Assembly: GCA_013426805.1 (NCBI GenBank)
Contig: JACDZG010000021.1
Coordinates: 1 to 64,000, forward strand
Source: Chromatiaceae bacterium
GTDB taxonomy: Bacteria; Pseudomonadota; Gammaproteobacteria; Chromatiales; Chromatiaceae
Length of the DNA: 64,000 nt
Reading direction: 5' to 3'
Shown here: positions 1 to 11,590 of the stretch, in pieces
Layout of the letters: every line of letters begins with the position of its first letter
Numbering within the stretch: position 1 is the first letter of the stretch
Notes under the pieces: model-generated
The model's database searches: none
Told to the model about the DNA's origin: nothing
The model's input: only the letters and a program-made list of their open reading frames with translations
Made by a program: the position numbers and the translations under genes

Positions 1-172
1 TATGACGAACGGATATAGGTCGTCGGTCCGCGCAGCGGACTCTACGGATCAATGGCTTGCCGTAGGGTCCGCTGTGCGGACCAAACTATGACGAACTGAT
101 ATAGGTCGTCGGTCCGCACAGCGGACCCTACGGATCAATGGTTCGGCGTAGGGTCCGCTGTGCGGACCAAAC
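1..172. repeat. Two tandem 86-bp palindromic repeat units
   Basis: Two near-identical 86-bp units lie head to tail (1-86 and 87-172). Each starts with TATGACGAAC and ends with GCGGACCAAAC. In the second unit a 21-bp arm at 111-131 is perfectly inverted at 148-168 around a 16-base loop. Each arm is itself a small palindrome (GGTCCGC aca GCGGACC). The first unit has a few mismatches in its left arm. The block ends 45 bases before the start codon of the large ATPase gene, so a transcript reading into that gene could carry these hairpins. It looks like a dispersed genomic palindrome family rather than CRISPR, since there is no unique spacer between copies. Confidence 0.85.
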
Positions 173-217
173 TACTTTTGTAGTGGTTGGCAGATCAGAG
201 GCAAACGGAGGTTGGCA

Positions 218-3200
218 ATGCAGATCGGTGATGTCGTTCATTTTGAAGAAGGACAGTTCTTCAACGGCGCGGTGCAGCTCGGTTGGGTACTCGATGAGCC
301 CGAGTTGGCGCAGGTGGTCGCGCGCGCCTTCGTTTTCCATGGGCCTCGCTATCATGGTGCGGGCACCGCGGAGCAGGATGGCATCGCCGCTGCGTATCGG
401 CTGAAGGACACCGCCGGCTTTGTTTGCGACCTCCTGCGCGTCATGGGGGCGGCGGCGAGCGGCCAAGAAACCAATCCCTACTGGTTGGCAGTGGCCGGGT
501 ACGGGTCCGGCAAGTCGCATTTGTCGGTCACTATCGCGGCATTGCTCGCGGATCCGGATAGCGCGACCGCGGCTCATATACTGGCTCAGGTTGGCAGTGC
601 CGACGCCGACTTGGGCGCGGACCTGGGCCGACGCCTCACCGCACTCGGCAAGCCGGTCCTGGTGCTGCCGCTCGACGGTTCTAAGGGGTTCCACCTGGGT
701 GCCGCGCTGAGCCGGGTGGTCTTGACGCGGCTCGCGGCGGCCGGCGTCGATGCGGATGCGATCCGTGCGCTGTCACCCCGGTTTCAGACCGCCGAACAAT
801 TCGTCGAGCGCAACTTCGCGTTCCGCACCGACGCCTTGTCAGCGGTATTGCCTGGTCGAGATGCAGCAACCATCTGCGCAGCGTTGCGGGACCAGGACGA
901 AGGTGTATTCGACGCCGTCAACGCTGTCTACTTGGAGGCGAATGGACACCCGATTCCTATAGAAGGCCAGGAGTCCGCGCAGGATCTGATGGATGCCCTG
1001 GCCCGTATCTACTGCGGCGAGGATGGACCCTTCTCACAAATCCTGATCCTGTTCGATGAGTTGGGCCTCTATCTGGAACATGCGGCGGATCATCCGGAGC
1101 GGGCCGGGGCGCGGGTATTGCAGGAGATCTTCCAGGGTGTGCAGAATAACCACAACAAGGTCCAGTTCGTCGGGTTTATCCAATACGAGCTAAAGGCGTA
1201 TCTGAAGCGCTTTAGCTCATCAGATCTCAAAGAATTGCAGCGGTACATCACGCGCTTCGACGCGGCCGAGAAGTGCTATCTCTCGACCAATCTGGAGACC
1301 CTCTTCGCCCACCTGATCCACAAGGATGAGGCTGCGCTCAATGCGCTCTGGGGACGCGCCGATCCGGCGGACCAGGGGCGCCAAACTTGGCAGCGGCTGT
1401 CTGCCGCGCTACCCGGATTCGACCGGGTCGCGGTCTGGAGCGACGAGGGCCAGTTTACCCGTGTGATCCTGCGCGGTTGCTGGCCGCTGCACCCGCTGGC
1501 GGTGTGGTTTCTCACCCGCCAGCACGATCTGGTACAGCAGCGTTCGGCGCTTGCGTTCGTCAAAGACGTGACGGAACGTTTGCGTGATCAGCCCGCCTTG
1601 GACGGCACCCGCTTACGGCAGATCGGTGCCGCCGGACTGGTGCTGGACTACATGCTGCCGGACCTGGTGGCCGCGGAGCGGGGGGGCGGCGGGACTGTTG
1701 CCGAGACCCTTCAAGGGCTACTCACCAAGTATTCGGCGATCCTCGATGACCCCCAGCGACTGGTCTTGGCGGGCATCGCGGTACTGGACAAGGCACACAT
1801 TGGACGCCGGAGCCAACCCACGGTCAATGCGCTGCTGTGCGAGGCAACGACGCTGGACGAAACGCTGGTTAGCGCCACGCTATCCGCGCTCTCGGCGCTG
1901 GGCGCTGCCGAGTGGAATCCTGACCTGCAGCGCTACGAACTGCTGAGCGACGGCGCGAGCCGAGCCCAATTCGAGCATTGGCTGCGAAGTCAACGACAGG
2001 CGATGTCCGCCGACGCTATCCGCCAGGTGTTCGTTAGTCCGGAGGCAGCGGATTGCCCGACTGGAGACATCCGGCCTGATTTTGACCGAGTCCATGACAT
2101 CCGGACGCCGGACTGGATCTTCAGCGCGCGTCACGCCCACCTCGGCATCATTGAAAACCTGATCCGACTGGCGTTCGACGAGTGGCGCCAGGCGACCCTG
2201 CCGACGGATGCCAAGGGCAAGCTGCTCTATCTCTTTCTGCATGAGGACGACGACCCCCTGGAGGCGGACCAGCGCGTGGCGGCGTGCTTCGACCTGGAAT
2301 TGCGGCGCTGCCAGCTTGACCAAGCCCCGATTTGGGTGATCCTGATCGCGGATCGACAGGGCCGCATCGCCGATCACTTGGCGCGGTTGGTCATCCTCAA
2401 TGGGAAGGTGTCCTCCGCTGACCAGGAGAGCTTCCGCCGTTTCATCCCCGATGAGCGTGAGCGCAGTCGGTTCGTCTTAAAGGAGACGGTGCAGGATGCC
2501 CTGATGGAAAGGCGCTATCGGATTGCCGGCTTTACTGAGCCGCCCGGTGATCGCCTCGCCGAGACCGCGGGTAAGATATTTTCGACGATCTATCCGAAGA
2601 CACCGCCCTTCCCGTTCGATGGCTTCAGCACGGCCAACGGCGGCGGCGCGCGCGATGCGGTTGAGGTGGCCAAGGCACTGATGGCGGGCGGCGTGAATTA
2701 TCCATGGATCCAATCCAAATCGACTCAGTTGCGTAATCGTATTGAATCGGTGCTCAACCAGAGTTGGCAGGTACTGAATGCGAATGGCGAGCCGGGTGTC
2801 CCTAGAGCGCCGTTGCTGAAGGCATTGATCGAGGAGATGGAGCAGGCACACGAGCGTGATCCGTCGTGTACGCTCTTGGCGACTTACCGACAGCTCATCG
2901 GTCCGCCCTACGGCTTAAACGCGTCATCGGCGGCCATACTGCTTGGCTTGTTCTTGGGTTTGCGCCATCCCCAGCGCGCTGTTGAATATGCCGGGCAGCA
3001 AGTGCTTCCCGCCAACTGGATCGCGCAGGTATTTTCAAATCGGTCCGGTCGGCATCACTTTGACGAGGTGACGCTGGGGGCCGCGACATTACGATTCTTC
3101 GATGGGGATGTGGAAGCGCAGTGGCGGGTGTTTCTGGATGAGTGGGAAGCGGTGGAACGCTACGACACGAAGTTGACATACGCCCGAAAGGCGAAAGAGA

Positions 3201-4705
3201 CACTTGTTGTCAAACCGCTGCCGCCGACCCTGGCGCTGGACTACACCCGTCTGCACGCGGATGCCGATCAGGCAGCCGTGCGGATTGGGGAGATGCAGCG
3301 CGTGATCAGCAAGTTGCAGGAGGAAATCGAACGGGCGGTCAGGAGTGCTAGTGTTCCGCACGCACTACAGTACGGCGCTAAGGCTCTGGAACTGAGTCGA
3401 AAACTGGCCACCGAACAGCTATGGCCAAGGAGCCTGGAAAAAGAGTTTGTCGCATTCGCCGAGATTGCCGAGGAGTTAGTCGCCAGCGAGGTCGCGAACT
3501 GGGTGCCGGGGCGGATTTGCCATAATCCACAGCAGGTCAATGAATTCCGGCGCCGTACCGAGTCTGAGGCATCCTGGCTGACCGCGCTGGGGTTCGTTGC
3601 GCAAGCGCAGGCACTGACCGCGCAGGCGCAACGCTCCATTGCGAGGGTGGAGGAGCTTCAGCGGCATACGTTGACACTGGCCAAGTGTGAAGACTACCCA
3701 CGCCAGCCGAACCCAATGAAGTCCACATCCGTGCTCCAACTGCGTGCGGAAGTCGATCAAGGTGATGAACTCGCCGCAAGCCTGCAGTCTATCCAGGCGT
3801 TAGCTACAGCCGAAAAGGATGCGCATATCAGTCTGATCCGGCGCCGCCAAGCGCAGTTGAAGGAGGCCATCGCGCAACGTGAAACTGAGCTTGGAAGGCT
3901 CGATGACCTGCGACTCGACAGCGAGGAAAGTGTGCGAGAGGCGCTGGCGACCGTCGAACGTCTACGGCAAGTTTTCGCCGGGACGAAGCACGAGGGCGCG
4001 ATGATCAACGATCTGGCCATCGTGCTCAACCGCCTATTGGCAGACGTTCAATCTTGGGAATCCGGCAGCGTCAGCGTCGAACGCCTGGCCGAGATCCTGC
4101 TTACGCTTGCCAAGCATCAAGTGGCTGATTTCCGCTGCTGGGCGGAACAAGGCGACATCGAGCCGCCGCCGCAGTGGGACTTGGACGCAATTTACCGCTC
4201 GCTGGTGAACGAGCGCGTCGCCGCGGCCAGCCGACGGTCCGCGGACTGGCTACGGCCAAGGACCGCGGGGGAGGGCAGCATCGCAACGCTGGACTTGGTC
4301 GCCTGTGCTTCGCTGGAGCGCGAGCTGATCGAGGCGCCGGCCTATCTCGCGGACGCTGACCGAGCGGAAGCGATCCGCCTGCATGAAGCGGTGCAACAGC
4401 GTCAAGCACAATTGCTCGAAAAGGAGCGATTTCAGCAGATGGCAGGGTGGCAGCGCCACTTCGTGGAGTTCAGCGACGTGATCACGCTCGACCGCCCGAC
4501 GGTTGAGCATTTGTTTAGTCTATTGGACAGTCCTCCCTGTCCCCTGCGATCGGAAGAACTGTCATGGCAGCGTGAAGTCGCGACCCGTCTGACGGCTCGC
4601 CTGGACGAACTCAGCCTTGATGACCTCGTCGCCCGCATCGAGCGCCTATCGCCGCTCATGCGCCTGGCATTATTCGACCGGCTGTCTCGATTGATGACGT
4701 CGTAG
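218..4705 (+). CDS. Large P-loop ATPase, BrxC/PglY-like (1495 aa)
   Basis: A very large cytoplasmic ATP-binding protein. A Walker A motif, AGYGSGKS, lies near residues 93-100 and a Walker B-type ILILFDELG near 275-283, followed by an arginine/phenylalanine-rich segment (QFVGFIQYELKAYLKR). The middle and C-terminal thirds are long helical, partly coiled-coil regions rich in Q, E and R. Size and order resemble the large ATPases of BREX-type systems (BrxC/PglY), but that assignment is by general pattern, not by alignment. ATG at 218 is chosen because GGAGG sits about 7 bases upstream; an in-frame TTG lies at 212. No methyltransferase, PglZ phosphatase or Lon-like BREX partner lies in the window, so this is not a standard BREX locus. 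The next same-strand genes encode membrane proteins of a probable shared system. Confidence 0.6.
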   Translation: MQIGDVVHFEEGQFFNGAVQLGWVLDEPELAQVVARAFVFHGPRYHGAGTAEQDGIAAAYRLKDTAGFVCDLLRVMGAAASGQETNPYWLAVAGYGSGKSHLSVTIAALLADPDSATAAHILAQVGSADADLGADLGRRLTALGKPVLVLPLDGSKGFHLGAALSRVVLTRLAAAGVDADAIRALSPRFQTAEQFVERNFAFRTDALSAVLPGRDAATICAALRDQDEGVFDAVNAVYLEANGHPIPIEGQESAQDLMDALARIYCGEDGPFSQILILFDELGLYLEHAADHPERAGARVLQEIFQGVQNNHNKVQFVGFIQYELKAYLKRFSSSDLKELQRYITRFDAAEKCYLSTNLETLFAHLIHKDEAALNALWGRADPADQGRQTWQRLSAALPGFDRVAVWSDEGQFTRVILRGCWPLHPLAVWFLTRQHDLVQQRSALAFVKDVTERLRDQPALDGTRLRQIGAAGLVLDYMLPDLVAAERGGGGTVAETLQGLLTKYSAILDDPQRLVLAGIAVLDKAHIGRRSQPTVNALLCEATTLDETLVSATLSALSALGAAEWNPDLQRYELLSDGASRAQFEHWLRSQRQAMSADAIRQVFVSPEAADCPTGDIRPDFDRVHDIRTPDWIFSARHAHLGIIENLIRLAFDEWRQATLPTDAKGKLLYLFLHEDDDPLEADQRVAACFDLELRRCQLDQAPIWVILIADRQGRIADHLARLVILNGKVSSADQESFRRFIPDERERSRFVLKETVQDALMERRYRIAGFTEPPGDRLAETAGKIFSTIYPKTPPFPFDGFSTANGGGARDAVEVAKALMAGGVNYPWIQSKSTQLRNRIESVLNQSWQVLNANGEPGVPRAPLLKALIEEMEQAHERDPSCTLLATYRQLIGPPYGLNASSAAILLGLFLGLRHPQRAVEYAGQQVLPANWIAQVFSNRSGRHHFDEVTLGAATLRFFDGDVEAQWRVFLDEWEAVERYDTKLTYARKAKETLVVKPLPPTLALDYTRLHADADQAAVRIGEMQRVISKLQEEIERAVRSASVPHALQYGAKALELSRKLATEQLWPRSLEKEFVAFAEIAEELVASEVANWVPGRICHNPQQVNEFRRRTESEASWLTALGFVAQAQALTAQAQRSIARVEELQRHTLTLAKCEDYPRQPNPMKSTSVLQLRAEVDQGDELAASLQSIQALATAEKDAHISLIRRRQAQLKEAIAQRETELGRLDDLRLDSEESVREALATVERLRQVFAGTKHEGAMINDLAIVLNRLLADVQSWESGSVSVERLAEILLTLAKHQVADFRCWAEQGDIEPPPQWDLDAIYRSLVNERVAAASRRSADWLRPRTAGEGSIATLDLVACASLERELIEAPAYLADADRAEAIRLHEAVQQRQAQLLEKERFQQMAGWQRHFVEFSDVITLDRPTVEHLFSLLDSPPCPLRSEELSWQREVATRLTARLDELSLDDLVARIERLSPLMRLALFDRLSRLMTS

Positions 4706-4795: not shown

Positions 4796-5410
4796 TTACC
4801 GCCCCATCAATCGCGCCAGCCCGTCCCAGCCGAGTTGCACGGCGAACAGCGCGAGTACGATCCCTAAGGCGCGACAGGCCAGGCGGTATCCCCCGCCGGT
4901 CAGACCCCGCCCCCAACGCGCGGTGAGCAGCGCCAGCACCACCTTGGTGCCGACGAGCAGTGTATAGAAGGCCAACAGGAACCACAGGGCCAACCAGGGA
5001 GATCGGTCCGCGGCGGCGGCCAGCAGCGGGCCGCCGAGGGTGATCCAGAACAGCCAGGGGTGTGGGCTCAGCAGGTTGACCGCGATGCCCCGCCCGAGCG
5101 CGCCGCCGGCTTCGGCACCGCCCGGTGTGGGCAGTACGGCGCGCCATTGCGCGAGCGCCAGGTGTGCGACCACCAAGGCTCCGCCCAACGACAGCGTGGC
5201 CAACCAGGGGGACCGGGGGTCAAGGCTGCCGGCCAGGCCCCAACTGAGTGCGACGATCGGCGTGTCGGTGAGCAGCGGGGCGAGCGCCACGCGGATTCCG
5301 GCGGACGCACCGCCGCGCAGGCTCTCGGTCATCACCAGGGCGAGCAGGGGGCCTGGCGCGAGTCCCGCGCCGAGGCCGAGCAGGACTGCTTGCAGAGTCA
5401 TCGCGAACAT
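4796..5410 (-). CDS. LysE-family amino-acid exporter
   Basis: A 204-aa inner-membrane protein of about six hydrophobic segments. The N-terminal stretch GLGAGLAPGPLLALVMTESL matches the LysE/RhtB pattern (a glycine-rich first helix followed by APGP). Family members export amino acids or related small molecules by proton antiport; the substrate cannot be told from sequence. Length is normal for the family. Two starts are possible, the ATG at 5410 or an ATG three codons later. The gene is on the opposite strand to its neighbours and interrupts the run of probable system genes, so I read it as a bystander. Confidence 0.85.
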   Translation of the reverse strand: MFAMTLQAVLLGLGAGLAPGPLLALVMTESLRGGASAGIRVALAPLLTDTPIVALSWGLAGSLDPRSPWLATLSLGGALVVAHLALAQWRAVLPTPGGAEAGGALGRGIAVNLLSPHPWLFWITLGGPLLAAAADRSPWLALWFLLAFYTLLVGTKVVLALLTARWGRGLTGGGYRLACRALGIVLALFAVQLGWDGLARLMGR

Positions 5411-5589: not shown

Positions 5590-5994
5590 ATGACTTCTGT
5601 TGTCGCACTCTACGATGCCCTGACCGCGGCCCCCGACGATCGCGCCCGTGCCCGGGTGATCGCCGAGGCGTTCGAGCGTCTGGAAGAACGCTATCCCCAC
5701 CTGCCGGATTTGGCCACTCAAGGCCATGTGCGGGAGGCCGAGTTGCGTCTGCAGAAGGAGATCGCGCAGGTGCATGCCGAGTTGAAACTCGACATCGAGC
5801 AGGTGCGCAGCGATCTGCGGGCCACTGAACTGAGCCTGAAAAAGGACATCGAGCAATTACGGGCCGAACTCAAGCTCGATATCGAGCGGGTCCGCGGCGA
5901 GGTGGCGCGCACCAAGATCGACTTGCTGAAATGGATCGTTCCGCTGATGTTTGCGCAAGTGGCCGCCATCGCTGCCTTGGTGAAGCTCCTCTGA
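5590..5994 (+). CDS. Coiled-coil protein with C-terminal membrane anchor
   Basis: A 134-aa protein. Residues 1-45 look like a small helical domain. Residues about 46-110 form a regular heptad coiled coil with repeated LKLDIEQVR / LKLDIERVR blocks. The last 20 residues (WIVPLMFAQVAAIAALVKLL) make one membrane helix ending at the C-terminus. This resembles DUF1640/CCDC90-like tail-anchored proteins and would place the coiled coil in the cytoplasm. There is no strong ribosome binding site in front of the ATG. It precedes the tubulin-like gene on the same strand by 84 bases and may be co-transcribed with it. Its function is unknown; a tether or oligomerising role is inference. Confidence 0.7.
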   Translation: MTSVVALYDALTAAPDDRARARVIAEAFERLEERYPHLPDLATQGHVREAELRLQKEIAQVHAELKLDIEQVRSDLRATELSLKKDIEQLRAELKLDIERVRGEVARTKIDLLKWIVPLMFAQVAAIAALVKLL

Positions 5995-6078: not shown

Positions 6079-8511
6079 ATGCCCAGACGCACACTCTTGA
6101 TTGGTTACGGCGGATTCGGTCTGGATGCCATGCAGCGGCTGCTGCATCAATCCGCGCTGCGCGGCGTGCTGCGCTGGCGCGAGACGCAGACCGGCGGGGT
6201 CGCCTCGGCCCAGCGTCAGCTCGAAGATCTGGGTTTGCTGGCGCTGCCCGACCCATTCGACGGCGCGGTCGGCACCGCCGCCCAGGCCGCGGCCGGTGCG
6301 CCCCAGTTCCTGACCGACCTCTACCGCCAGATCAAAGTGCTGCCGGCCGATGCGTCGGCTGTCGAGGGTGGGGTCGCGCACTGGGTGCGGCGCGCGGCCG
6401 ATGCGCTCATGGCGCAGGGCGCCTTCGATCAGGGCGACCTGGTGGGGCTCGACCTGATCGTCCTGGCGCGTCCGACCGTCCCCGAGACCATCCCCCATCT
6501 GGACATCCTGCTCCAAGATATCCTGAAAACACTCGCCGACTCGCGCTTCTTCCAGGTTGCGGTGCAGGGCGCGGAGAATCTCAACTGTATCCTGGTGCTG
6601 GACTTCGACGACTATTGGCTGGGCGCCGGCGCACCGGAGGCGGTCGCCACTGCCGAAGGGTTGCGCGCGGCCTTGCGCAATTCCATGCTGGGCTGGGAGC
6701 GCCGACAGGCCCAGCGGCTGGCGGCGGTCGACCGCTGTTATCTGGTGGACGGCCGCACGGCGATGGGTCATCGTCCGCCGCCGGTGCGGCTCGATGAGGT
6801 GGTGCTGTTTCTCGAACTGCTGTTGTTCGAGGGGCTGCGCGCCGTCAGGCAGGGGCTCTTTCAGCAGCAGTCACTGGCCCAGCCCATTACCGCGACCTTT
6901 GGTATCCGTCTCCTGGAAGAAAGCACCCTGGTGCTGAGCCGCGAGGCGGCGGCGACCTTCGGACGGCGCTGGCTGGATGCCCTGATCGGGGATCAGGAGC
7001 AGTGCCCGGACCGCGCGGCCCGGCGGGTGCAGGAGACCCTGGAACCCTATCGCCGCCGGACCATCGAGCAGGGTATCGACGATGCCCGTCTGGAACAGTT
7101 GTTCGCGGTCGGCGGCACCCGGTTGACCCAGGCGCTGATGGCGGTGCCGGACCGGCAGGCGGCGGACTGGCCGGAGCGCCTCCGGGCCGTTTTCGAGCGC
7201 GAGCGCCAAGCCCTGGCGCAGACGCTGGACCGCGCCGGCTGGGAGATCGTCAGCGCGCTCAAGAAGGCGCACTTTCAGGACCTGGATCAGCAGGTCGCGG
7301 CGGCGGTCGAGGCCGATCTGCATGACGCGCGCGCCCCGGCCTCGCTGCGCCTGGTGCGCGAGGCGATCGACAGTCTGCACGATGAGGGCCGTCTGGGGTC
7401 TGACGGCTTGTTCCCGGAGGCCGCGGTCGACGCCGATCCGCTGCGGCGCCTGCGGCTGCTGCACCGGCGCTATCGTGATCACTCCGACGAATGGCTGGCC
7501 CGTCAGGGCCGCGCGCTGCAATGGTTCTGGCCGCTGTTCGCGCTGGTGCTCGCACTCGGCCTGGCACCCCTGTCGGTGCGGGTGGCGGGTCAGCTCAAAC
7601 CGCCCGGTCCGACCTGGCTGAATGGCTGGCTCGATCAGGCGGTGACCACGCTGCACACGGTCAATCAGCCGCTGCTCTGGACGCTGGTGTGGCTGCCGCT
7701 GCTGTGGCTGCTGTTGGCGCTGCTGATTCAACCGCTGATCACCGCCCGCATCGCGCGCGCCCAGCGCTTTTTCACCAGCGCCGAGCGCGGACGCTTTCAT
7801 GACCATATTCGCGACCTGCTGGCGCCGCTGCGCGAGTCTTTGCTGGAGCGCGTGCGCCGTAACATCCGCTCCAGTCTCGCCAACGACCTGCAGAAAACCC
7901 TGAGCCGCATCGGCGAGCGGCTCGCCGAGCGCGGGCGGGAGATGGACTGGCTGCGCCGTCAGCTCAACGAGTTTCTGCGGCTCAGCAGCCAGCCGACCAC
8001 CCCGGTGCGCAAATGGGTCAGCCGCGACGGCGCGCTGGAGACCATGCTGGAGGCCAATCCGCCGATCCGCGACCGCATCTGCTATCGACAGGAAGCGCTG
8101 CCCCAGCCCTTCGCCGGCTGGAACGCGCACTTTTGCGATGCCTTCCTCGACCCGCTGCGCTTCATCGACAGTCTGAGCAAGCCCTATGCGGACGGCTATG
8201 AGCACGCCTTGCAGCGGCGTGATGCCGGTGAGGATCTGCCGCTGCGCCGCCGCGAACTGATCGATTTCATCGACCATAGCCGTCTGGCGCCGGCCTGCCG
8301 GTTCATGCAGGACACCGGCGTCACCGATGAGCAGCGCTGGTGCATCACCGCGCAGCGCTGGCGCAGGGTGCCGGGCATGGTCGAAGAATTGAACAATCGG
8401 CTCGGGATCATCGCCGAGGACATCATCCCGGCCCGCGATCACGCGCGGGTCTATCTGCTGGTGCTGCAAACCGGGGTGGCGGCGGTGAACCTGGAGCGGG
8501 AGCAGGTATGA
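6079..8511 (+). CDS. Membrane protein with tubulin-like N-terminal domain
   Basis: An 810-aa protein. Residues 5-18 read TLLIGYGGFGLDAM, a beta strand followed by a glycine-rich loop and helix, as at the start of bacterial tubulin-like (Tubulin_2-type) and other Rossmann-like nucleotide-binding proteins. I do not see a canonical tubulin/FtsZ signature GGGTGTG, so GTP binding is unproven. Two strong membrane helices lie near residues 478-503 and 531-558 with a short loop between. The C-terminal 250 residues are highly charged and helical (for example RRNIRSSLANDLQKTLSRIG). Both ends are therefore probably cytoplasmic. The stop codon overlaps the ATG of a 24-codon ORF (ATGA), which in turn overlaps the next large gene, indicating tight translational coupling. 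Confidence 0.5.
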   Translation: MPRRTLLIGYGGFGLDAMQRLLHQSALRGVLRWRETQTGGVASAQRQLEDLGLLALPDPFDGAVGTAAQAAAGAPQFLTDLYRQIKVLPADASAVEGGVAHWVRRAADALMAQGAFDQGDLVGLDLIVLARPTVPETIPHLDILLQDILKTLADSRFFQVAVQGAENLNCILVLDFDDYWLGAGAPEAVATAEGLRAALRNSMLGWERRQAQRLAAVDRCYLVDGRTAMGHRPPPVRLDEVVLFLELLLFEGLRAVRQGLFQQQSLAQPITATFGIRLLEESTLVLSREAAATFGRRWLDALIGDQEQCPDRAARRVQETLEPYRRRTIEQGIDDARLEQLFAVGGTRLTQALMAVPDRQAADWPERLRAVFERERQALAQTLDRAGWEIVSALKKAHFQDLDQQVAAAVEADLHDARAPASLRLVREAIDSLHDEGRLGSDGLFPEAAVDADPLRRLRLLHRRYRDHSDEWLARQGRALQWFWPLFALVLALGLAPLSVRVAGQLKPPGPTWLNGWLDQAVTTLHTVNQPLLWTLVWLPLLWLLLALLIQPLITARIARAQRFFTSAERGRFHDHIRDLLAPLRESLLERVRRNIRSSLANDLQKTLSRIGERLAERGREMDWLRRQLNEFLRLSSQPTTPVRKWVSRDGALETMLEANPPIRDRICYRQEALPQPFAGWNAHFCDAFLDPLRFIDSLSKPYADGYEHALQRRDAGEDLPLRRRELIDFIDHSRLAPACRFMQDTGVTDEQRWCITAQRWRRVPGMVEELNNRLGIIAEDIIPARDHARVYLLVLQTGVAAVNLEREQV

Positions 8512-8582
8512 GTCAAGCCGCGCGCTTATCGGCCGGGTCGCCCCGCGGCGCGACGCCGCTTCCCTGGGGGTGGGGCCAATGA
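8508..8582 (+). CDS. 24-codon ORF coupling two large genes
   Basis: A mini-ORF that begins MSQAARLSAGSPRG and ends in WGWGQ. Its ATG overlaps the TGA of the tubulin-like gene (ATGA at 8508-8511) and its TGA overlaps the ATG of the next gene (ATGA at 8579-8582). A purine-rich GGAGCGGGAGCAGG precedes it. The double 4-base overlap suggests that ribosomes pass from one long gene to the next through this short frame. Whether the peptide itself has a role is unknown; its composition is unremarkable. It could also be a chance frame filling a 67-base gap. Confidence 0.45.
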   Translation: MSQAARLSAGSPRGATPLPWGWGQ

Positions 8583-11500
8583 GCCTGGTCGCCGCGTTGC
8601 CGGTCTGGCTGATCCCGGTTGCGGCCTTCGCCGTCGCGCTGGGGTTGGCGTTCGCGCTCAATGCCCTGGTCATCGCGCGGCGGCCGGACCGCGACAGCGG
8701 CGCCTTCTGGAGCCCGGTCCTGGTCTGGTGCGGCGGCTTGCTGGCGCTGTCGCTGCTCTATGCCTGGACCCTCCAATGGCTTGAGGCGGTCTGGTGGTTC
8801 AAGGGCTGGCATCCCTTGTTCGACGCGACCGGACTCAAGGTCGCCCTGCCGGGGCTGCCCGCTCTGGAACTGCCGGTGCCGACGCCCCTGGGCGCGGACG
8901 GGCTGCGGCTGGCGCATCCCGAGTGGTGGGCGCTTGCCATGCCGTTCGCCGTCTGGTTCGCGGTGATCCTGATCCGGCTCCTGCTGCCCGCGGCGCAACG
9001 CGGACCGGAACAGCCGCGCCCCGGCGGCTGGCTGGCCGGTTCCGCCGGGTTCGCGTGTTCGCGGCACTGGGTGGGGTATGCCCTGGCGTCGCCGCTGTTG
9101 CTGCTGCTGGTCTGGAGCGCCGATCAGCTCGGCGAAGGGCCGATCCAGGCGCGTGCCGCACTCTGGGGGACCCTGGCCGTCCTCGCCGTTACCCTCATCG
9201 TCCTTGCCTTCAGTCGCGGCCGGGCGGGCGCCGCGGCAGTCGAGCCCGCGGTGGCGCCGGCGCCTGAAACCGACGCCGACGACTGGGTGGACGCGCTGCG
9301 CCGCCGCGGCTTTGCCGTCACGCCGCTCGCGCGGCTCGAACCCAGTCTTGAGGGGATCCAGACCCAGGACCCCGGTGCCTGTGCACTGCTCGACCAATGG
9401 CCCTTCCTGCGCGAGCGCCAGGTGGCCCCGGAGCTGGTCGAGGCCGTCGCCGATCTGTTCGGCGCCGGTGTCGGCGGGCGCCGCCATGGGCTGGACCGGC
9501 TGATCCTGGCCCCGGACGATGCCGGCCAGTTGGAGACCCTGGCCGCGGCCATCCGCCTCACCCACCTGCGTCTGGAACTGGTCACCCTGGTGATCTGTCC
9601 GCGGGGCGCGACCGCGCTCGCGGAGCGTCTTGCGCCCTGGCTGCCGGGCCGCGAGCTGATCCAGCTGCCGCGGGCCAATGCGCCCATCGACACCACGGCC
9701 ATGGTTTGGGTGCTCACGGCCGGCACCCTGTCGGATCAGTTGGCCGACCTGTCCGATCATCCGCTGCTGCTCAATCGCATCGGTCTTGTCGCCTGGTGGG
9801 ACCTGGACGCCTATTCCGGCGTCATGGCCGCCAACTTCTGGGCCGTCTCCCATCGTCTGCACCGGCTGATCAAGGGTAAGGGCCGGCAGGAGACCCGCTC
9901 GCTCACCTTCGCCCGCTATCACCAGAGCCACGAGGCCAATTTCGCCGCCTTCGCCGCGCAGACGCTGCCCTATGACTACCAGGCCGAGGATCGGGTGGTC
10001 GTCGCCCAGCGCCGACGCCATCCGCTCTGTATCCACCTGCTGGAGCCGACGGCCGATCTCAAGCCCGCGGACCTGGTCGCACAGGATCATTGGGACCCCA
10101 GCCTGTTGGCCGCCCGGACCTCGGTGGAGGCCGGCTGGCGTACCCGCTTCGAGCCGCCGCGGGGCCTGGATCGGATCAAGGCCGCCGACTTCCTGCAACA
10201 GCGGATCGACGGCCGCCGCCTGGCGCAGTGGCTGCCGCCGGGGCCGGCCGACGCCGGGGCGCGGATCATGGAAGCGCGGGCCGAGGACGTGCTCGCGCTC
10301 GGTCAGTTGCTCTCCCAGGGCGGACGCTGTATCGAGTACCTGCCGGCCCATCATGTCGGTGTGCTCCTGCCGCCGGGGAACCCCTATGTGCGTCGACTGC
10401 TGCTGCGTCTGGAGCAGGATCCCGCGGCCTTCTTCCGCCTGGTGCGCCGGTTGGTCCCGGGTGTACCGCAGCCGGCGATCGTGCGCCGTCATCTGCTGCT
10501 CGCCTTGCGTGAGATGGAAGCGGTGGCCAACGGCCTGCTCACCACCTTTCAATGGCGCGACAGCATCCTCGATCCGGTCTTGGAAGACCTGGCCAACCAT
10601 CACCAGATCGAACGCCGCGACGTGCGCTTTCTCGACCACGACAACCGGCTCAAGGTCGATACCGGCTATACCAGTTCGGTCGCGGAATATCGCCCCGGTC
10701 CGCTGGACACCGTCGGCGATCAGTTGGTCTCGATCATTCTGCGCGAGGCCGGTGAAGCGGAGGAACTGCTGCTGCGCATCGACCCGGAGCGGGTGACCAT
10801 CGTCGCCTATCCGCGGCGTGTCTTTCAGGTCAAGGGCCAGACCTTCCGTATCAACGCCTGGCCCGGCACCGATGCACAGGAGATCAAACGCCGCGGCGTG
10901 CTCTATTGCACCCGTACCGATGACCCGGTGCTGACCTGGCGGGTGAGTGAGCCGCGGCTGCGCCGCACCCTGGTCGACCCCAGCCAGAACCAGGCGTTCT
11001 TCGCCAACAATACGCTCAATAAGGTCGTCATTCAGACGCAGTACGCGGAGGAGGTCAGCGGCCTCATTGAGGTCCGGCGCGATGGCCAGGGCGATTTACA
11101 GTCAGGCGCGAGGCACCGGAGCGAGACCGACTGGGGCGAACCCATCGAGAGCCTGACCTTCCCGACCAAGGGGCTGATGCTGCGCTTTCTCGAAGAAGAT
11201 CTGGCCGAGCGCGCCGCCGCCCTGCATTCCATCGCGCTGGCCTTGAGCCAGGTCCTGGCGGTGCATGTTGGTGTCGAAGAGGACGCGGTGCGCGTCATGG
11301 CGGCGGAGAACCTCAAGGTCGGCCGCCGCCGCGAATCGGGTCTGGTCATCCTTGACCTGTATCCGCATGGCATTGGCCTGATCGATGCGCTGAACGACGA
11401 CGACGCGCTGTTGCGCCGCATGCTCGAGCACACCCGCGACTGGCTCGCCGAATGCCCCTGCGCCAGCGAGTCCGGCTGCGCGCTCTGTCTGCAATCGCCA

Positions 11501-11590
11501 CCGTCCATCGCCGCGACTCGCTATTCAGTCGACCGTCATTTGAGCCGGCGCGAGGCGGTGGAGGTGTTAAGGCAGGTGTTGGGGGATTGA
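8579..11590 (+). CDS. Membrane-anchored degenerate MrfA/DUF1998 helicase-like protein
   Basis: A 1003-aa protein. The first 220 residues hold about five membrane helices. From about residue 235 the order follows the MrfA/DUF1998 helicase family: a segment DRLILAPDDAGQLETL where the family has its TGTGSGKT P-loop, then LVAWWDLDAYSGVMAANF (about 402-419) where it has the DEAH-box VVIDEVHTYRGVFGSH, then a DUF1998-type region (YPRRVFQVKGQTFRI) and a C-terminal cysteine cluster CPCASESGCALC near 959-970. The catalytic lysine of motif I and the DEAH acids are not conserved, so helicase ATPase activity is probably lost while the nucleic-acid or zinc-binding scaffold remains. ATG at 8579 is chosen over an in-frame GTG at 8570 because of the GGGGGTGGGG just upstream and the overlap with the mini-ORF stop. 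Confidence 0.65.
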   Translation: MSLVAALPVWLIPVAAFAVALGLAFALNALVIARRPDRDSGAFWSPVLVWCGGLLALSLLYAWTLQWLEAVWWFKGWHPLFDATGLKVALPGLPALELPVPTPLGADGLRLAHPEWWALAMPFAVWFAVILIRLLLPAAQRGPEQPRPGGWLAGSAGFACSRHWVGYALASPLLLLLVWSADQLGEGPIQARAALWGTLAVLAVTLIVLAFSRGRAGAAAVEPAVAPAPETDADDWVDALRRRGFAVTPLARLEPSLEGIQTQDPGACALLDQWPFLRERQVAPELVEAVADLFGAGVGGRRHGLDRLILAPDDAGQLETLAAAIRLTHLRLELVTLVICPRGATALAERLAPWLPGRELIQLPRANAPIDTTAMVWVLTAGTLSDQLADLSDHPLLLNRIGLVAWWDLDAYSGVMAANFWAVSHRLHRLIKGKGRQETRSLTFARYHQSHEANFAAFAAQTLPYDYQAEDRVVVAQRRRHPLCIHLLEPTADLKPADLVAQDHWDPSLLAARTSVEAGWRTRFEPPRGLDRIKAADFLQQRIDGRRLAQWLPPGPADAGARIMEARAEDVLALGQLLSQGGRCIEYLPAHHVGVLLPPGNPYVRRLLLRLEQDPAAFFRLVRRLVPGVPQPAIVRRHLLLALREMEAVANGLLTTFQWRDSILDPVLEDLANHHQIERRDVRFLDHDNRLKVDTGYTSSVAEYRPGPLDTVGDQLVSIILREAGEAEELLLRIDPERVTIVAYPRRVFQVKGQTFRINAWPGTDAQEIKRRGVLYCTRTDDPVLTWRVSEPRLRRTLVDPSQNQAFFANNTLNKVVIQTQYAEEVSGLIEVRRDGQGDLQSGARHRSETDWGEPIESLTFPTKGLMLRFLEEDLAERAAALHSIALALSQVLAVHVGVEEDAVRVMAAENLKVGRRRESGLVILDLYPHGIGLIDALNDDDALLRRMLEHTRDWLAECPCASESGCALCLQSPPSIAATRYSVDRHLSRREAVEVLRQVLGD

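What the first reader, a model, noticed from the sequence alone, without database searches (positions are those of the whole stretch)
218..4705. BrxC/PglY-like ATPase without other BREX genes
A giant P-loop protein with the GYGSGKS and LFDELG motifs of BREX-type ATPases sits alone of its kind, with no methylase, PglZ or BrxA/B in the window. It may be recruited to a different machine.
Basis: inference. Interest (0 to 1): 0.5.

Follow-up and report, generated by a model that had tools for sequence, protein, structure and literature searches.

The report
Second ATPase of sulfur-DNA phage defence
The giant ATPase is not an orphan: it is the last gene of a DNA-phosphorothioate (sulfur-mark) defence locus cut apart by contig ends, of a variant in which the attack genes carry their own DNA-binding protein and ring ATPase.

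Summary
Window 218-4705 encodes an intact 1495-aa ATPase with the quoted motifs. Its N-terminal model is closest to BREX BrxC (Z 18.8), yet no BREX core gene was found in the window. Position 1 is a contig start. Contig C312 overlaps the window's first 55 bases exactly and carries most of sspH plus a DUF4007-like gene whose last codons and stop are window 1-18. Contig C48 carries sspA, B, C, D, F, G and the 5' part of sspH. The locus is therefore a phosphorothioate (PT) Ssp system, not BREX. Of 38 related loci, 33 have the DUF4007-like gene upstream and 32 have SspH. Published SspFGH has three genes; two plasmid examples lack the extra DUF4007-ATPase pair. The ATPase forms its own clade beside the PglZ-side ATPase of type-4 BREX, apart from SspC. 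Best reading: an effector-side scanning/loading ring for SspFGH, mirroring the writer-side SspB-SspC pair; this mechanism is inferred. In this strain sspH is split by an insertion element, so restriction is probably off. New variant of a known kind.

The parts
1..18 (+). last five codons and stop (YDERI*) of the DUF4007-like gene; the rest is on contig C312 (4459-5334)
1..172 (.). two 86-bp direct repeats (93% alike) with 22-23-bp inverted repeats, spanning the end of the DUF4007-like gene and the gap before the ATPase; site of the assembly break
207..211 (+). ribosome-binding-site-like GGAGG ahead of ATG 218
218..4705 (+). ATPase gene, 1495 aa, SspC/BrxC-like, ORC/Cdc6-type AAA+ fold in the N-terminal part; effector-side partner of the DUF4007-like protein
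497..517 (+). Walker A, GYGSGKS (residues 94-100)
1049..1066 (+). Walker B region, LFDELG (residues 278-283)

Best explanation
The gene is the fifth gene of an effector (restriction) module sspF-sspG-sspH-DUF4007-ATPase that belongs to an Ssp DNA-phosphorothioation defence system (sspA-sspB-sspC-sspD-sspF-sspG-[fic]-sspH-DUF4007-ATPase in this genome, on contigs C48, C312 and C144). Shown by sequence: gene content and order, homology, conserved ATP-binding motifs, BrxC-like fold of the N-terminal part, a DUF4007-ATPase pair separate in its trees from the writer-side SspB-SspC pair, and an insertion in sspH in this strain. Inferred: SspA-D put PT marks on self DNA; the second DUF4007-like protein (DNA-binding) and this ring-forming AAA+ ATPase load on and scan unmarked DNA and hand it to SspF (ATP-binding, here with a putative sulfur-binding domain), SspG and the HerA-type translocase SspH, which damage it. 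In this strain the split sspH probably makes the attack arm inactive.
For: Exact 55-bp overlap of the C312 end with window 1-55; in the loci held the 55-mer lies only in stretches of C144 and C312, and of ten genome places with up to 3 mismatches to the 31-base core only these two share the same variant. C48: SspA 7e-135, SspB 2.9e-74, SspC E 0, SspD 8.6e-105, SspF 8.9e-25, SspG 5.6e-16 (PADLOC). C312: SspH 1.4e-24, DndH 1.2e-56. The C48 and C312 ends show near-identical inverted ends and a 9-bp target duplication in sspH. Of 38 related loci: DUF4007-like gene upstream 33 (28 within 300 bp), SspH 32, SspG 23, SspF 20, writer-side PAPS reductase 6, PT-associated methyltransferase 21. ATPase group of 34 rows 95/98 against SspC group of 12 rows 100/99; the DUF4007 tree splits likewise. 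Identity matrices: ATPase and DUF4007 r 0.93 (31 loci), ATPase and SspH r 0.958 (24 loci), 0 of 2000 permutations each. BrxC fold Z 18.8, rmsd 6.0, 482 residues.
Against: The link between contigs rests on a 55-bp overlap and on gene order in relatives, not on a read. SspF/G/H matches to PADLOC models are partial, and the longer aligned stretches are 20-31% identical to the two plasmid SspFGH sets. The DUF4007 name is weak: the C312 protein scores 21 bits against Pfam's cut-off of 27, and 3 of 10 effector-side proteins tested pass it; profile comparison with SspB gives 97.7%. Only 6 of 38 loci show the writer's PAPS reductase within the DNA held. Published SspFGH works without this pair, so its need is unproven. 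In G000 sspH is split and sspC is in two frames. Co-divergence can be common descent. The ATPase's tie to type-4 BREX has only 82/82 support, with long branches. PT and anti-phage activity were not tested.
Confidence: 0.78

Rival explanations
1. A BrxC/PglY of a BREX system whose other genes lie off the window.
For: BrxC-like fold; closest cousins outside its own clade by BLAST are the PglZ-linked ATPases of two type-4 BREX plasmid loci (E 6e-20 and 1e-19).
Against: None of 12 BREX queries matches the window, C312 or the 15 kb of C48 held; among 38 related loci the only match is a BrxL in L093. The queries cross between BREX types poorly (type-4 PglZ and type-1 PglZ did not find each other), but the large genes of the C48-C312 stretch are accounted for by Ssp genes and a Fic gene.
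Confidence: 0.05
2. A spare SspC: a second copy of the PT-writing ATPase, acting in modification rather than attack.
For: PADLOC SspC is the best model (5.2e-14); its neighbour is DUF4007-like, as SspC's is SspB.
Against: Separate groups for ATPase and DUF4007; operon position after SspH, not with the PAPS reductase; six of 38 relatives, and G000, carry both versions.
Confidence: 0.12
3. A decaying leftover with no function in this strain: the locus is broken and the intact ATPase frame is only not yet decayed. (This can hold together with the best explanation, which is about the system.)
For: sspH split by an insertion element, sspC in two frames; 5 of the 55 genomes of the relatives search match, two of them only in short pieces (G004, G006); the G025 copy is broken.
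Against: ATPase and DUF4007-like frames are intact over 1495 and 291 aa; many relatives have full-length frames of the module.
Confidence: 0.4
4. A partner of the downstream genes in the window (810-aa protein and MZB-domain protein, 6079-11590).
For: Same strand, next large genes.
Against: The MZB-domain protein matches in 9 and the 810-aa protein in 7 of 55 genomes, the ATPase in 5 of 55; G025 and G033 have the ATPase but neither of the two; a LysE gene on the other strand lies between.
Confidence: 0.03

Closest known systems
SspABCD-SspFGH (mBio 2021, PMC8092258; passages read)
   Same: Writer genes sspA-D next to sspF-G-H, with matching PADLOC models; order CysDes-SspB-SspC-SspD-SspF-SspG-SspH as in a Microvirga plasmid.
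   Different: Published as a three-gene effector; two plasmid examples lack the second DUF4007-ATPase pair. F/G/H are 20-31% identical over the longer stretches; SspH's translocase domain matches DndH models best.
Type-4 BREX (PMC12839542, section 34 read)
   Same: PT-type BREX; two plasmid loci hold two ATPases with DUF4007 proteins, one set by the PAPS reductase, one by PglZ-BrxL; the latter ATPase is the nearest cousin.
   Different: No PglZ or BrxL found here; SspFGH stands in their place.
BREX-related capture (BRC) systems (PMC12839542, section 36 read)
   Same: BrxC-like ATPase, DUF4007 and HerA translocase together.
   Different: BRC is described with PglZ, a STAND NTPase and sometimes TGT/GNAT; no PglZ found here, and SspF/G are present.
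HerA/FtsK capture systems with Orc/Cdc6 ATPases (PMC10853773, section 22 read)
   Same: HerA-type translocase with an ORC/Cdc6-type ATPase and, in a subset, an SspB-related winged-helix protein.
   Different: Those are described with REase and inactive-REase domains; the section names no SspF/G or PT writer module. REase domains were not tested here.

Membership tests
SspABCD-SspFGH phosphorothioate system | PT writer genes sspB, sspC, sspD (with sspA or iscS) | tested here: met
   C48: SspA 7e-135, SspB 2.9e-74, SspC E 0 (895-aa part; frame split), SspD 8.6e-105
SspABCD-SspFGH phosphorothioate system | effector genes sspF, sspG, sspH | tested here: met
   SspF 8.9e-25, SspG 5.6e-16, SspH 1.4e-24; partial, divergent matches; the sspH 5' part alone has no PADLOC match and is named by 54% identity to the L097 SspH; sspH is split here
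SspABCD-SspFGH phosphorothioate system | effector of three genes without a second DUF4007-ATPase pair | tested here: not met
   pair present in this locus and in 33 of 38 relatives, not found in L116 and L117; treated as a variant
SspABCD-SspFGH phosphorothioate system | PT marks in DNA and PT-dependent phage restriction | not testable with these tools
   needs bench work
DUF4007 (PF13182) | Pfam cut-off of 27 bits for the protein before the ATPase | tested here: inconclusive
   C312 protein 21.0 bits; 10 of 10 effector-side proteins have DUF4007 as best family, 3 of 10 over the cut-off; hhalign to SspB 97.7%, 2.5e-12
BREX | PglZ | tested here: not met
   four PglZ queries, no hit at 1e-4 in the window, C312, 15 kb of C48 or the 38 loci; PglZ types cross poorly, so sensitivity is limited
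BREX | BrxC-type ATPase | tested here: met
   fold only: BrxC Z 18.8, rmsd 6.0, 482 residues; by sequence far from BREX-1 BrxC
BREX | methylase (PglX) or, in type 4, PAPS reductase with BrxL | tested here: not met
   no methylase hit; PAPS reductase is SspD (8.6e-105; BrxP model only 5.7e-11); BrxL in 1 of 38 loci (L093), none in the G000 stretches tested
BREX-related capture (BRC) | PglZ with DUF6079 ATPase, DUF4007 and HerA | tested here: not met
   PglZ not found; no Pfam hit for the ATPase at E <= 1
DISARM or PglY | relationship of the ATPase to DISARM-linked ATPases or PglY | not tested
   no reference sequences fetched

The most novel reading that the evidence does not exclude
PT defence is built from two copies of one chassis: a DUF4007 DNA-binding protein plus a BrxC/SspC-type ring ATPase. 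One copy drives the writer (with SspD); the other drives the attacker, and this attack chassis is swapped between PglZ-BrxL (type-4 BREX) and SspF-G-H (this locus). Self/non-self choice would then be a contest between two related rings loading on the same DNA.
Probability: 0.3. Interest if true: 0.65.

Novelty: new variant of a known kind. Interest (0 to 1): 0.45.

Why it matters
How SspFGH tells sparsely PT-marked self DNA from foreign DNA is open. It also corrects the filing: this is no lone BREX ATPase, and PADLOC's SspF/G/H models match only parts of these divergent proteins.

Tried and rejected
BREX with genes off the window: rejected, since the upstream contigs hold Ssp genes. In one search the type-4 and type-1 PglZ queries did not find each other's control loci, and the BrxA and BrxB queries found only their own locus though the Haloarcula control is annotated with both; so those absences are weaker than the PglX and BrxL ones. 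Link to the downstream pair 6079-11590: rejected by independent occurrence. A tubulin-like nature of the 810-aa window protein was my first guess; Pfam gives no Tubulin_2 hit. The tubulin-like protein is a different neighbour in relatives.

Searches that gave little: the search for related loci with the single protein (none confirmed); PDB by sequence (none useful); PADLOC SspH model across the class hits 353 of 369 genomes, which I take to be FtsK-type proteins, so no prevalence of SspFGH could be taken from it. The alignment search over the class matched 6 of 369 genomes: G000 and G231 over nearly the whole length, G149 over 348 positions, G109, G258 and G281 over other parts or with weak scores. 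With the long ATPase as query no second SspC was seen in G000 (best E 0.039), although C48 holds one: that search was too insensitive.

In one search the script took the longest plus-strand ATPase of each locus, so for L089 it took SspC; L089's long ATPase is in two pieces behind a short DUF4007-like frame. Of the 5 loci without a DUF4007-like gene, L073 has 508 bp upstream and L077 about 1.7 kb before the contig end; L093 and L098 have about 10 kb and lack it; L089 is the fifth. Dropped from the ATPase tree: L009, L010, L099 (taken as duplicates of L070, L073, L071), L096 and L077 (no intact N-terminus); frames under 1000 aa never entered, save the 895-aa C48 and 805-aa L120 rows. In the DUF4007 tree frames under 240 aa and L009, L099, L100, L107 were left out, and one BREX-4 row went in twice.
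Full report
What was claimed and what is there. The frame exists: 212-4705 + by the ORF list, better from ATG 218 with GGAGG at 207-211, 1495 aa. The quoted motifs are there, and their key residues are invariant in 20 aligned sequences including the window's. Pfam gives nothing at E <= 1, NCBIfam one chance-level hit, PADLOC gives SspC (5.2e-14 best) and no BrxC.

Why it looked alone. The window is the start of contig C144 of genome G000, which has 349 contigs. A relative in G025 has a DUF4007-like and a DndH/SspH-like gene in front of the ATPase and a methyltransferase-like gene behind it. The DUF4007-like protein of G025 led to G000 contig C312 (59% identity). C312 ends with exactly the first 55 bases of the window, and the last codons and stop of its DUF4007-like gene are window 1-18. 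The break sits in two 86-bp repeats with inverted repeats; a 31-base core of them, with up to 3 mismatches, lies at ten places in the genome, two of them in the window, a normal cause of a contig end.

The rest of the locus. C312 carries 1479 aa of an SspH/DndH-like protein from about residue 374 of relatives on, then the DUF4007-like gene. Its left end begins with 54 bases shared with three other contigs. The missing sspH start (residues 1-380 of the L097 protein, 54% identity) is at the left end of contig C48. C48 (first 15 of 33 kb held) reads, on its minus strand, cysteine desulfurase (SspA model 7e-135), DUF4007 (SspB 2.9e-74; Pfam 2.8e-74), SspC (E 0; frame split 895 + 254 aa), PAPS reductase (SspD 8.6e-105), SspF (8.9e-25), SspG (5.6e-16), a Fic-domain frame, and the sspH 5' part. 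The two ends facing each other carry near-identical inverted ends (GGGTGCGATC[G/C]AAACTGATG) and the same 9 bases of target, GCCGAGGCC (read by eye from that print-out). So a mobile element most likely sits in sspH in this strain. Its body was not looked for beyond the 40-base end pattern.

Relatives. The first genome-contig scan confirmed nothing; with a three-row alignment the second gave 38 loci. By record title about half are Chromatiaceae or Methylococcaceae; others include Marinobacter, Caballeronia, Desulfuromusa, a planctomycete MAG and a Bacillota MAG. Clustering of their frames gives the order SspF-SspG-SspH-DUF4007-ATPase. Counts, k of 38, with loci cut by contig ends counted as misses: DUF4007-like gene upstream 33 (28 within 300 bp), SspH 32, SspG 23, SspF 20, PAPS reductase 6, PT-associated methyltransferase 21, cysteine desulfurase 8. 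The methyltransferase's name is confirmed for L088 (TIGR04096, 5.8e-156); SspF and SspG names come from PADLOC for L063 and L088. The loci are not all independent: L081/L086 and L069/L091 are close.

The name DUF4007. The writer-side protein of C48 is a full DUF4007. The effector-side ones are remote: of 10 tested, all have DUF4007 as their best Pfam family, but only 3 reach the cut-off of 27 bits, and the C312 protein has 21.0. A profile of the ten against a profile of eight SspB proteins gives 97.7% probability, 2.5e-12, over 203 columns. I take them as distant SspB relatives; DNA binding is inferred from that kinship.

Two pairs. Six of the 38 loci (L063, L066, L085, L088, L090, L095) carry a writer set DUF4007-SspC (1116-1195 aa)-PAPS reductase besides the effector set; with G000 that makes seven. 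The ATPase tree (50 rows, 621 columns) puts 34 effector-side ATPases in one group (95/98), 12 PAPS-linked SspC in another (100/99), and two PglZ-linked type-4 BREX ATPases nearest the effector group (82/82, long branches). BLAST agrees: window against the BREX-4 pair E 6e-20 and 1e-19, against the best SspC 1e-4. The DUF4007 tree separates 34 effector-side rows from 14 writer-side and BREX-4 rows (SH-aLRT 100). Pairwise identities of ATPase and DUF4007 run together (r 0.93, 31 loci), as do ATPase and SspH (r 0.958, 24 loci), each 0 of 2000 permutations; ATPase and SspC r 0.878 in 7 loci, 10 of 2000. Shared descent alone could give this.

Comparison with published SspFGH. The 2021 paper describes a three-gene module, each gene needed, in which F has a Walker A motif and the C-terminal end of H resembles FtsK/SpoIIIE (PMC8092258, passages). 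Two plasmid loci of that kind, Microvirga and Sphingobium, hold SspA-D and F-G-H. Three effector-side ATPases and three effector-side DUF4007 proteins as tblastn queries find no second pair there: the ATPases match nothing under E 0.006, and the two DUF4007 matches under 0.001 fall on the loci's own SspB genes; the control locus L090 gives 5e-173 or better for the ATPases and 5e-44 or better for DUF4007. Their F, G and H are 20-31% identical to those here over the longer stretches. Two comparative-genomics papers on PT and BREX systems (PMC10853773 sections 16, 22 and passages; PMC12839542 sections 13, 16, 34, 36 and passages) do not hold the terms SspF or SspH in their main text. Searches for 'DUF4007' (3 papers), 'SspFGH' (21 papers, 20 listed), 'BREX, phosphorothioate, BrxP' (3) and a five-term search (7) showed me no description of this five-gene effector; of these papers I opened five, in passages or sections (the three named here, PMC12707154 and PMC11931770), and supplements were not searchable.

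Fold. AlphaFold2 on residues 1-900 with 20 rows: pLDDT 85.0, pTM 0.58. Residues 1-579 match Acinetobacter BrxC (Z 18.8, rmsd 6.0, 482 aligned; 18.5 for the ATP-bound dimer), then Cdc6/Orc1 (12.8). PMC12839542 section 16 describes BrxC as an ORC/Cdc6-type AAA+ followed by wHTH, alpha+beta and coiled-coil parts; beyond residue 579 the model was barely tested, and residues 901-1495 were not modelled.

Mechanism. Shown: gene set, order, conserved ATP site, fold, separate groups, and the split sspH. From the literature: SspA-D make PT marks and SspFGH damages DNA without them (PMC8092258); SspB has a triple winged-helix DNA-binding module and SspC-type ATPases are predicted to ring DNA (PMC10853773). 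Inferred: the second pair is the scanning and loading arm of the effector. SspF of this genome has at residues 12-140 a match to a type IV restriction enzyme model (5.8e-11) and at 4-153 to plasmid proteins, two of them annotated as phosphorothioated DNA-binding restriction endonucleases, which suggests a sulfur-reading domain; Pfam finds nothing in SspF at 0.01. Among 21 SspF frames of relatives, L071, L078 and L081 show the same N-terminus; many frames are cut by the locus edge, and the L097 frame lacks it.

Verdict. A good catch of a BrxC-like ATPase; the lone position is an assembly artefact. The system is a variant of a known kind, with an unproven but testable role for its second DUF4007-ATPase pair.

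Noticed in passing
window 6079-11590: A two-gene pair (810 aa; 1006 aa with an MZB domain, PF09369 1.1e-7) conserved in close relatives. In L038-L041 it follows a protein of about 1100-1184 aa that is Tubulin_2 (PF13809, 2e-40 and 5e-40) in the two tested, with double-GTPase, GmrSD or weakly VWA-like proteins near in single loci; the first 14 kb of the window lack that gene.
   Followed up: partly
L119 11210-17587 (Thermus oshimai plasmid): A tubulin-like protein of the same cluster stands two genes before BrxL and after a vWA protein.
   Followed up: no
G000 contigs C48 and C312 (L060 1-60, L043 1-60): Insertion element in sspH with a 9-bp target duplication; its 54-bp end also opens contigs C278, C244 and C343.
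   Followed up: partly
L060 1172-2533: A Fic-domain protein (PF02661 2.6e-20, Fic-like_C 1.5e-24) between sspG and sspH; L061 and L072 also have extra frames at that place.
   Followed up: partly
L090 14688-16889 and L085 14330-16555: A gene of 730-740 aa just behind the ATPase; the L090 one is GmrSD (PF03235/PF07510), which I recall to be the DUF262-DUF1524 architecture that one search gives for SspE, so both PT effectors may share one locus.
   Followed up: partly
L085 and L090: Six proteins of the locus are 82-96% identical between a Rhodopirellula (Planctomycetota) MAG and Marinobacter: recent transfer, or MAG contamination.
   Followed up: no
L069, L080, L091 (Thiocapsa), e.g. L091 1724-8847: A cassette of five frames, one in L091 a DEAD-box helicase (PF00270), sits between sspH and the DUF4007-like gene.
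   Followed up: no
G000 contigs C221, C56, C255 (L057, L058, L059): Three dndC-family genes (TIGR03183, all above the cut-off) besides sspD: possibly more PT systems in the same genome.
   Followed up: partly
window 1-172: The second 86-bp repeat copies the last codons of the DUF4007-like gene (YDELI* against YDERI*), so the repeat includes the gene's 3' end.
   Followed up: partly
L009 and L070 (G025): A decayed copy: a stop inside the sspH frame and a frame break in the ATPase.
   Followed up: no
L093 3519-4922 (Thiocystis minor): A BrxL relative upstream of the ATPase, the only BREX core match among the 38 loci; no DUF4007-like gene there.
   Followed up: no
G006:C537 2696-2968 and G004:C262 16884-17162: Short matches to the ATPase in two same-genus genomes (E 2.7e-10 and 2e-4), perhaps remnants.
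   Followed up: no
window 4796-5410 and 5590-5994: A LysE-type exporter gene on the minus strand (PF01810 2.5e-13) and a CCDC90-like coiled-coil gene (PF07798 2.9e-8); relatives of both lie by the downstream pair in L036, of the coiled-coil gene also in L037.
   Followed up: no
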